DNA of 64,000 bases, from contig JAKULF010000009.1 in NCBI GenBank assembly GCA_022661535.1, positions 1,116,001 to 1,180,000 of the forward strand. The letters are read 5' to 3'. The notes below the pieces were generated by a model. It was not told where the DNA came from, ran no database searches, and saw only the letters and a program-made list of their open reading frames with translations. This document shows positions 46,267 through 60,409 of this stretch, piece by piece; positions within the stretch are counted from its first letter, which is position 1; each line of letters starts with the position of its first letter. Both the position numbers and the translations under genes were made by a program. Source of the DNA: Eutypa lata. Taxonomy: Eukaryota; Ascomycota; Sordariomycetes; Xylariales; Diatrypaceae.

Positions 46267-46297
<31 letters not shown>
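46267..46297 (-). other. Poly(A) tract at the 3' end of the integrated viral copy
   Basis: Thirty-one uninterrupted T on the plus strand, i.e. A31 on the viral strand, placed 322 bp after the stop of the last viral ORF. The position and orientation are those of a 3' tail, indicating reverse transcription of a polyadenylated RNA. Confidence 0.75.
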
Positions 46298-46298
<1 letters not shown>

Positions 46299-46619
46299 TT
46301 AAAGAAAATAAAGAAATATAAAATAAATGAATGACACGAATCGAAACATTCTATACCAAAATCTCGGGAATTGCAACCCAAAACGTATACGTGTCAATCT
46401 TTAGAACTCCTACAGGAATTCCATAATTTCTCTCGTCGGAAGTGTTGAAAGCTTCCTTGACGAGATTGTCATAGGTCCTCATCCGAAAGAGTTGAAAGCT
46501 TTCTTCTGAGAGTCATAAATGAAAAAGAGCGTTAGCGATTTTAAAATCAACAAAACGCCTCCAACGGAACATGAAATTTCCATACCCGCCTTCCATCCAC
46601 TTCATACCCGGATCTTACC
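46298..46619 (-). other. Viral 3' untranslated region with a repeated hairpin-like motif
   Basis: No long ORF on the viral strand. Two copies of a motif around the 10-bp palindrome GAAAGCTTTC, each followed by AAC(A/T)CTT on the viral strand, lie about 50 bp apart (near 46445 and 46495). They may be structured elements for minus-strand initiation; this is inference. Confidence 0.5.
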
Positions 46620-58300: not shown

Positions 58301-58870
58301 GAACTGGCCCGGTGAATCGATGACGGCCTGCGCCCTCTGTTTCTTCACCGCGCGCTTGTTGCCCGCCTCCCCAGGACTAGGCTCCTCGTTCAGCTGCTCT
58401 TTGATCCACGTGTCGAGGTTGTACACGCGCGTCGACAGCCTGGCTGAGTCCCTGTGACTCAGCAGTGGGCAGCAGCAGTGAAAGTTCTCTCTGCCCATGA
58501 TGATATAGTGGTAGAAGTTTCCACCGACGTCCACTACCTTCTGATGTCTGGAGCATCTTGCAACTGCCAGCTCTTGTTCTATTACTCGCCTGGCGTTGGC
58601 TAGGCCGTGACCCGAGCCAGAAGTGGCGGAGAATTCAAGGTCGAGAAATGGATAAACCGTATTTGATAAGTAATTACGATCTTCCGCGCTCAGGTAGACC
58701 CGGATGCGCACCTGCTTCCTAGAAGCATTGTACGCAGTGTCTCTCTTGTACTCTTCCGAATAGGGACGAGTGGCGATCTGCTGGATGATACCATTAGGAT
58801 CTGTTGTGCTAGACAGCAGCCCTCGTTCCAGGGCGCTCTCTTTAATTGGATTATTATTTGGATTCTCCAT
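52350..58870 (-). CDS. Viral replicase: methyltransferase - OTU-like protease - membrane segments - SF1 helicase
   Basis: Coding 58870-53804 joined to 53237-52350, about 1,984 residues. Residues ~60-400 form the alphavirus-like capping methyltransferase: His88 in SGSGHGLANA, the D-x-x-R motif in SHRDSARL (Asp141, Arg144), FLDSLYDIPVDDIA and the Tyr of GYGYFIFQPEMM. Residues ~600-800 are low-complexity and charged. Residues ~820-985 look like an OTU cysteine protease, with Cys in DDYCGVNQCAV and His in INQNHWQSIVP. Another acidic/basic linker precedes two or three hydrophobic segments (~1305-1375), probably membrane anchors. The SF1 helicase starts with Walker A AGVPGCGKS (Lys1698), has motif II FIDEGL (~1757), motif III FGDDQQ, motif V INEFEGG and motif VI VGISRHTERFD (~1936). 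There is no internal stop or frameshift apart from the 566-nt intron-like insert. The start ATG at 58870 has a short overlapping upstream ORF. Confidence 0.88.
53238..53803 (-). other. Intron-like insert splitting the viral SF1 helicase before Walker A
   Basis: 566 nt with a consensus donor GTAAGT at 53803, branch-like CTGAC and acceptor CGCCCAG ending at 53238, in phase 0. The flanking codons join to give a normal helicase Walker A lead-in. Inside are many stops in the viral frame, a polypyrimidine stretch soon after the donor, and an open frame on the opposite strand (53273-53512) without known similarity. It is long for a fungal intron. RNA viruses lack spliceosomal introns, so it was gained after or during integration. 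Confidence 0.65.
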
Positions 58871-60409
58871 TTTGAAGAATCATGTTGTGATATAATATGT
58901 ATGTTGAGTGTATGGTAAGAAAAGATAAGCTAACTACAAGGAACCACACATTCTAAACTTTGCAAACATCGGCGCGACTCTACCTCTTTAATAACTTTGG
59001 GAGTGAAAGAAAGCTTCCCAGCGGTTGGTTAGTGGTTAGATAGTCAAAGAAGCCCAACGTAGTTTTCCATACGTCCATTTTATATATGTAAGTAGGGAAC
59101 TAATCTTGAAATCTTTCGTCCTGGTTGCAGAACACCATATCACTCTCCGGGATGGGGAGGGGGGATACGGGAAACGCCATACTACACTAACTAGAACAAA
59201 GCCCTCGTTTATTACGCCGTTAAGCACTTGAACGATGACTGTATGTATATTACACTTTTAGCCTTCCATATCTACCAAGTACTGATCAGGTTCCAAAGAC
59301 AAATTAGTCGAGAGAAGGATTATCGGCATTGGTGTAAGCATCATACTTGCTCAGAGATTGAGGGAAGTGCCGGTGCTTAGCGGCTAGACGGTCAGCGCAA
59401 GTATAAGTGAATGACGTTCTACTGCCTAGTTAACACTCTAGGCACGGCCACACAGATTCATCCGTTATACTGGGCGAGAATTAGGCCCTAAAGCCTTGCC
59501 TCGGCGTATAAATCTAATAGGAACGCAAGATATTAATTGTTGATTGAATTTAACGTGGGAAACGTCCCTTTCTCAGGATAAATCATACCTCCCAGACCCA
59601 TCACATTATAACAAGGGCTCTAAGGGCTTGGAACCATGTCAAATTCAACTAACAATTCTCTATGGTCTCAAGGTCCATACTTGTTCTATTTCCCTCGTAC
59701 GACACCGGGAAATTGGACCCTTATTTATACACAGTTTCTAGGCACATATCTCTTTGTTCTGTTGCAACCATAAATGTTGCAAAGATGAGGTTGGTACTAT
59801 TAACCTAAATACATTCCTTCAACGATGAAGAACTTTTATCAATGTCGTTTTAATCGTTGCAGTTGCAGCTAACACATGTTGGCGGCGATCCTCGTATAAC
59901 ACATATCGTGAAATTATCAAAGGGTATAAAGGAAGGCCTGTAGTCACAATAAGGGGCTAGGTCATGTGATCGCCAATCACATGATGCAGCTAATGATAAA
60001 GGGTGATAATACTTGCCTTATACATCAGGCCTCAATGCGCAAAGTGGTAACTGCGCCACCTCGCCGCTGCAACTCTGCTGCAGCTAGCGGCCCGGTGGCT
60101 GTACCGGATCATATGCTTGAGCTTTTATAAGAGTTATTATATAAACGACTTTATTCTTTATTAAATATTAAATATAAAATATTATTATAAATTATATTAT
60201 TTTAATTTAAATATTAATTATAAAATTATATATATTTAATTTTATTATAATAATTAAATTATTTTATTTTAATTTAAAATATATTAAATTTAATAAATTC
60301 GTAAAAAATTATATTAATTAAAAAATGCTTAATGTATAAGATAAACATAAGCGAATCTTCTTTAAGTTTTGTATAACGATAACCCCGCATACCTTGCGGG
60401 GCTCTTATC
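58871..60409. other. Viral 5' leader at left edge, then intergenic
   Basis: The first few dozen bases beyond 58870 should be the viral 5' leader, but no border can be fixed. From about 59000 on, ordinary AT-rich DNA follows, with no gene recognised. It ends in a short patch of nearly pure A+T. Confidence 0.5.
60130..60340. repeat. Short RIP-like AT-only patch
   Basis: About 210 bp with almost no C or G, the same composition as the large RIPped block, probably a small repeat remnant. It marks the left edge of the deaminase-MYND gene's upstream region. Confidence 0.55.

What the first reader, a model, noticed from the sequence alone, without database searches (positions are those of the whole stretch)
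46267..58900. Near-complete endogenous copy of a virga-like RNA virus in a fungal genome
Seen: methyltransferase, OTU-like protease, SF1 helicase, amber stop, GDD RdRp, SF2 helicase, zinc-finger ORF, 3' UTR and poly(A), all on one strand in viral gene order over about 12.6 kb. Known: fungal endogenous viral elements from plus-strand RNA viruses are usually short RdRp or helicase fragments. Inference: a full genomic RNA was copied and integrated, and this combination of domains may represent an undescribed lineage of virga-like mycovirus.
Basis: partly seen in the sequence, partly recalled or inferred. Interest (0 to 1): 0.95.

Follow-up and report, generated by a model that had tools for sequence, protein, structure and literature searches.

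The report
Near-complete fungal RNA-virus fossil with intron
A fungus of the order Xylariales carries, in its own chromosome, an almost complete DNA copy of a tobamo-like RNA virus of fungi, and the copy seems to have since gained an intron of the kind found in ordinary genes.

Summary
Confirmed: on the minus strand of window 46267-58900 lies a near-complete copy of a plus-strand RNA virus in viral gene order: methyltransferase, SF1 helicase, TAG, RdRp, DEAD-box helicase ORF, small zinc-finger-motif ORF, 3' UTR and 31-nt poly(A). No second copy was found in the 54.5-Mb genome, which is Xylariales. 'Undescribed lineage' fails: layout and RdRp tree place it among fungal tobamo-like viruses, now Tobaliviridae, and an endogenous relative is already cited from Eutypa lata. 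The OTU protease was not confirmed.
A near-identical protein from ENA data has the same tail read into this stretch. ORF3 is split by a frame break. Best reading: a polyadenylated genomic RNA was reverse-transcribed and inserted; the copy later gained an intron and began to decay. No target-site duplication was found, and splicing is untested.

The parts
53804..58870 (-). ORF1 up to the intron-like stretch (1689 codons, no stop); methyltransferase at about 58702-57797
   Evidence: PF01660 E 3.4e-32 over residues 57-358; frame checked; unspliced reading runs on to 53624
55871..56443 (-).
   Evidence: Pfam 0 families; PDB profile one unrelated match E 1.3; alignment of 3
53238..53803 (-). Intron-like stretch, 566 nt, phase 0: GTAAGT ... 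TACTGAC ... CAG
   Evidence: only GTAAGT in 12,601 nt of the coding strand; flanking pieces abut at residues 1674/1675 of relative P0026; no second copy found in the genome (on 53240-53799); no Rfam match at E up to 1
52353..53237 (-). SF1 helicase (295 codons), starting VAGVPGCGKS
   Evidence: PF01443 E 1.2e-26; 79.5% identical to P0026 over 293 positions
52350..52352 (-). In-frame TAG, candidate readthrough codon, followed by a strong predicted RNA structure
   Evidence: 82 nt downstream fold at -32.6 kcal/mol, z -4.0 against 200 plain base shuffles; the only stretch so tested
50784..52349 (-). RdRp (521 codons, GDD intact)
   Evidence: PF00978 E 1.1e-74; 4 nsP4 RdRp chains in PDB, best E 1.6e-17; homologues
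49443..50687 (-). ORF3 front frame: N-terminal part, charged low-complexity middle (by eye), helicase motif I (by eye)
   Evidence: PF00270 E 1.8e-4, under its cut-off; N-terminus 44% identical over 124 positions to a Claviceps pusilla protein
47786..49555 (-). ORF3 rear frame: rest of the DEAD-box (SF2) helicase; ORF3 is broken by a shift of frame between the two
   Evidence: PF00270 E 1.9e-6, over its cut-off; no PDB match at E 0.01
46620..47660 (-). ORF4, 346 aa, zinc-finger-like N-terminus; by position the coat-protein gene of tobaliviruses
   Evidence: no credible Pfam, PHROG or PDB match
46298..46619 (-). 3' untranslated region
46267..46297 (-). Poly(A) tract, 31 nt
58871..58935 (-). Probable 5' untranslated region; its outer end is a guess from the 63-nt leader of NaTLV1
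   Evidence: inference

Best explanation
A genomic, polyadenylated RNA of a tobalivirus was reverse-transcribed by a cellular reverse transcriptase and inserted, near full length, beside mutated repeats in the chromosome of a Xylariales fungus. After insertion the copy gained a 566-nt spliceosomal-type intron inside the replicase gene and took a frame break in ORF3. It most likely does nothing as a virus now; it is a recent relic shared, intron included, with other isolates or close relatives. Shown: domains, order, poly(A), no second copy found, intron-like stretch absent from one relative's protein and present in a near-identical one. Inferred: reverse transcription, that splicing happens, that the intron came after integration, that the near-identical sequences come from other isolates.
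For: Domains in viral order on one strand; poly(A) of 31 nt; searches of the own genome with RdRp, helicase, methyltransferase, SF2 rear frame, ORF4 and intron each gave this place alone; the window starts 1.1 Mb into a contig. [quoted passage not shown] Intron: pieces kept apart abut exactly at residues 1674/1675 of P0026; canonical donor, branch and acceptor; chance of both in 7-nt slots about 6e-6 from counts in the element or 2e-5 from minus-strand counts in the window. P0025, from ENA data with 5 differences in 1748 residues, ends in the same tail read into the intron, which a spliced or intron-free viral RNA would not give.
Against: No target-site duplication found (nothing of 12 or more with at most one mismatch; longest exact match 9). 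No clearly intact nuclear LINE-type reverse transcriptase: of 6 matches to PF00078, 4 (on three contigs) are interrupted only by TGA, as mitochondrial genes would be, 1 has 3 TAA, and 1 looks like telomerase by eye (counts are lower bounds). The intron is long for a fungus (recalled) and no transcript shows splicing. The slot width and splice pattern used for the chance estimates were chosen after seeing the site. No DNA of a relative was available, so absence of the intron there rests on one protein (P0026), which could itself be a gene prediction.
Confidence: 0.75

Rival explanations
1. Same integrated copy, but the 566 nt are a plain DNA insertion, not spliced, with splice-like ends by coincidence.
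For: GC 0.44 against 0.58 on both sides (bounds 2 nt wider); no transcript evidence; 566 nt is long for a fungal intron (recalled).
Against: Boundaries fixed by homology carry donor, branch and acceptor; joint chance about 6e-6 to 2e-5; no residue lost at the junction.
Confidence: 0.15
2. The replicase has been co-opted: the host keeps it open and splices it, for example as an antiviral or RNA-silencing factor.
For: 3806 codons without a stop; neutral chance of that 0.17 at 0.5% divergence, 0.03 at 1%, 0.0008 at 2%; intron gained; GDD and GCGKS motifs present (by eye); near-identical proteins in other data.
Against: Youth explains open frames equally well; uninterrupted 31-nt poly(A); ORF3 broken; constraint could not be measured, since relatives were seen as proteins only.
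Confidence: 0.12
3. Assembly chimera or a free virus contig joined to fungal DNA.
For: GC above that of the surroundings and mostly intact ORFs; no reads were available to check the junctions.
Against: Over 1.1 Mb inside a contig; other data hold near-identical ORFs on contigs of 17,260 and 17,312 bases, longer than the virus; the tail read into the intron recurs in P0025.
Confidence: 0.02

Closest known systems
[quoted passage not shown] PMC12090730
   Same: Four ORFs (methyltransferase-helicase; UAG; RdRp; DEXDc ORF3; ORF4), poly(A); RdRp 54% identical over 97% of the query
   Different: Free RNA virus of 10.2 kb with ORF1 of about 1620 aa; here about 12.0 kb without the intron-like stretch, with ORF1 of 1984 codons in two pieces, in chromosomal DNA
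[quoted passage not shown]
   Same: Endogenous, same virus group, host in Xylariales, E. lata draft genome 54.0 Mb
   Different: In the parts of that paper I saw it is only a replicase protein; it is not named among the hits, so whether it is this very element is open
Claviceps pusilla protein E4U43_008237 (P0022)
   Same: Tobalivirus-like RdRp (50% identity over 70% of the query) in an annotated fungal genome
   Different: Order differs: ORF3-like N-terminus lies before helicase end and RdRp; fragmentary
Mycovirgaviridae (proposed) and Virgaviridae
   Same: Martellivirales-type replicase
   Different: Mycovirgaviruses are segmented, Virgaviridae are plant viruses; this one follows the non-segmented tobalivirus layout

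Membership tests
Tobaliviridae / fungal tobamo-like viruses | RdRp groups inside the known members | tested here: met
   Tree of 25 rows, midpoint root: 8-row clade with Nigrospora TLV1 (99/98), sister to the 12-row clade with Podosphaera TLV (96/92), the 20 together 99/99; Tobalivirus nigrosporae and podosphaerae are listed species
Tobaliviridae / fungal tobamo-like viruses | Methyltransferase and SF1 helicase before a UAG, then RdRp | tested here: met
   the helicase now lies behind the intron-like stretch
Tobaliviridae / fungal tobamo-like viruses | DEXDc helicase ORF3 | tested here: met
   PF00270, frame broken
Tobaliviridae / fungal tobamo-like viruses | ORF4 coat protein | tested here: inconclusive
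   Right place and size (346 aa; NaTLV1 ORF4 37.0 kDa), no credible sequence match
Tobaliviridae / fungal tobamo-like viruses | Non-segmented, poly(A) | tested here: met
   all domains in one stretch with poly(A)
Endogenous viral element | Virus sequence joined to host DNA on both sides | tested here: met
   In the assembly only; reads not available
Endogenous viral element by LINE-type retrotransposition | Target-site duplication | tested here: not met
   the 5' end is not known exactly
Spliceosomal intron | GT-AG ends, branch site, frame kept across it | tested here: met
Spliceosomal intron | Spliced transcript | not testable with these tools
   no RNA data
OTU protease | Family match by sequence | tested here: not met
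OTU protease | OTU fold | not tested

The most novel reading that the evidence does not exclude
The host has turned a near-whole RNA-virus replicase into a spliced nuclear gene: intron gain plus open frames with intact motifs mean it is expressed and kept, perhaps as an RNA-dependent RNA polymerase working in antiviral silencing.
Probability: 0.12. Interest if true: 0.85.

Novelty: new variant of a known kind. Interest (0 to 1): 0.55.

Why it matters
It could catch intron gain in a sequence whose ancestral, intron-free state is known because it was a cytoplasmic RNA virus, which would make timing and source of an intron testable across isolates. It also records a tobalivirus lineage in Xylariales.

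Tried and rejected
Undescribed lineage: rejected by the RdRp tree and layout. Repeated intron-maker (introner) as source: not supported at the sensitivity, only the copy itself found. Known RNA inside the intron: none in Rfam up to E 1. Inverted repeats of 10 or more in 53150-53880: none; one imperfect purine-rich direct repeat. OTU protease: not supported. Relatives in IMG/VR: 3 stretches matched a pattern, none confirmed. RIP of the copy itself: not seen; its CpA and TpG levels are ordinary while the neighbouring 38.2-45.6 kb is stripped of CpA. Host: one protein search only; nearest named is Monosporascus sp. MG133 at 86%, an unnamed protein is at 97%; none of the names shown in the 120 rows listed (of 187) is Eutypa, so the species is not settled. 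Literature on endogenous tobalivirus copies or introns in them: searches gave nothing beyond the citation in PMC12090730 (for the other papers I saw listings only, except those named in the full report).

Full report
What is there. On the minus strand between the poly(A) (46267-46297) and about 58900 the window holds six open stretches: ORF1 58870-53804 (reading on to 53624 if unspliced), helicase 53237-52353, RdRp 52349-50784, ORF3 in two overlapping frames 50687-49443 and 49555-47786, and ORF4 47660-46620. Pfam gives viral methyltransferase 3.4e-32, SF1 helicase 1.2e-26, RdRP_2 1.1e-74 and DEAD helicase 1.8e-4 (under its cut-off) and 1.9e-6 (over it). The RdRp matches 4 nsP4 polymerase chains in the PDB, best E 1.6e-17 (nsP4 being alphavirus polymerase is recalled). 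A TAG separates helicase and RdRp; the 82 nt after it fold at -32.6 kcal/mol, z -4.0 against 200 plain base shuffles, as would suit stop-codon readthrough.

The OTU-like protease was not confirmed. The piece 55871-56443 has no Pfam family at E up to 10, and a profile of three relatives finds one unrelated PDB chain at E 1.3. The alignment keeps Q36, C37 and H163 in all 3, while the histidine of 'NHW' is Q in P0027. ORF4 has a C2H2-like motif by eye and no credible database match.

One copy found, in a chromosome. Searches of the 54.5-Mb assembly with RdRp, helicase and methyltransferase, SF2 rear frame, ORF4 and the intron stretch each give only this locus (the tool scores best candidates only). 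It lies at 1.16-1.17 Mb of contig 9. To the left are 0.6 kb and then 7.4 kb of 8.5% GC with almost no CpA (19 CpA, 194 CpG), which looks like heavy repeat-induced point mutation; its edge at 45600-45667 matches 33 further places, several of them in pairs some 4.6-7.5 kb apart, as long terminal repeats would be (pairing by eye). The right flank (58935-60105) has one other match, 82 nt at 76%. The virus copy shows no such mutation, as expected of a single-copy sequence. No target-site duplication was found, so reverse transcription is inferred from the poly(A) and the viral gene order alone.

Relatives. [quoted passage not shown] The ORF1 search returned 4 among 8000 (a cap): P0025 (near-identical), P0026, P0027 and a Drosophila virga-like virus. 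In a tree of the 24 plus the window the copy sits with P0001 and P0002, in a clade that also holds the Nigrospora virus, next to the clade with the Podosphaera virus (root at midpoint). Pieces of ORF1 are 76%, 41% and 50% identical to P0026 and the helicase piece 80%. P0026 lies on a 21.2-kb contig, twice the length of the 10.3-kb virus genomes reported, so it is probably endogenous too (inference).

The intron-like stretch. Exon-side sequence ends ...TTG | GTAAGT and resumes ...TACTGACCTTTCGCCCAG | GTC. Kept apart, the piece before it aligns to P0026 up to residue 1674 and the piece after it from residue 1675, so nothing is missing or added at the protein level. GTAAGT occurs once in 12,601 nt of the coding strand, exactly here; 19 branch-plus-acceptor sites occur. 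Seven-nucleotide slots give chances of 0.00056 and 0.011, about 6e-6 jointly; counts from the window's whole minus strand (14 and 117 in 64,000) give about 2e-5. Slot and pattern were chosen after seeing the site. The stretch has no second copy at the sensitivity, matches no RNA family at E up to 1 and shows no inverted repeats. P0025, from ENA data, has the identical tail read into it, so it is not peculiar to this assembly. A cytoplasmic RNA virus has no use for such an intron; gain after integration is the simplest reading. Splicing has not been seen.

Age. 3806 codons in the checked frames hold no stop. If neutral, the chance of that is 0.49 at 0.2% divergence, 0.17 at 0.5%, 0.03 at 1% and 0.0008 at 2% (each transversion weighted at a quarter of a transition), so the copy is young or kept open by selection. 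The unbroken poly(A) and the frame break in ORF3 favour youth and decay. Eight amino-acid differences separate it from P0025 (5 of 1748) and P0001 (3 of 478); the single changes that explain them are, seen from the window, 4 C>T, 3 G>A and 1 A>G, all transitions; direction of change is unknown and silent changes could not be seen.

Host. A DUF829 protein of the window (11666-12553) is 97% identical to an unnamed protein and 86% to Monosporascus sp. MG133; the next named are Hypoxylon cercidicola and Nemania serpens. Monosporascus and Eutypa are both in Xylariales. Genome size, 54.5 Mb, resembles the 54.0 Mb of Eutypa lata UCR-EL1, but no Eutypa name was shown in the 120 of 187 rows listed. Host: Xylariales, species open.

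Literature. [quoted passage not shown] PMC13068599 (passages) says non-segmented tobamo-like viruses are now Tobaliviridae. PMC6655640 (passages and the tobamo-like section) describes the same layout in ArTlV1. PMC3668001 (first of two parts) gives the E. lata genome. Nothing on an intron in such a copy turned up in the listings.

Verdict. A real, near-complete endogenous tobalivirus: a new member of a known virus family in a known kind of genomic relic, with one unusual trait, an apparently gained intron.

Noticed in passing
window 38000-45667: Stretch of about 5-24% GC with CpA nearly absent but CpG kept; edge repeat at 45600-45667 matches 33 other places in the genome, several in pairs 4.6-7.5 kb apart (pairing by eye). 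Looks like RIP-mutated LTR elements.
   Followed up: partly
window 45794-46099, minus strand: 102-codon open stretch reading like the middle of an AAA+ ATPase by eye (LLNEAVVFLAAR...ILILMTNR), no Pfam match at E 0.01; possibly a gene relic beside the insertion.
   Followed up: partly
P0022, Claviceps pusilla protein E4U43_008237: An ORF3-like N-terminus (44% over 124 positions) sits in front of helicase end and RdRp, opposite to viral order: rearranged or tandem endogenous copies, or a fused gene model.
   Followed up: partly
P0027: A relative lacking two conserved stretches of the methyltransferase region, as a wrongly spliced gene model of another endogenous copy would.
   Followed up: no
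L021 3649-4518 minus strand: Open reverse-transcriptase frame on contig 10 that looks like telomerase by eye.
   Followed up: no
window 3503-5143 plus strand: HET-domain protein, heterokaryon incompatibility type (PF06985 E 1.5e-5).
   Followed up: no
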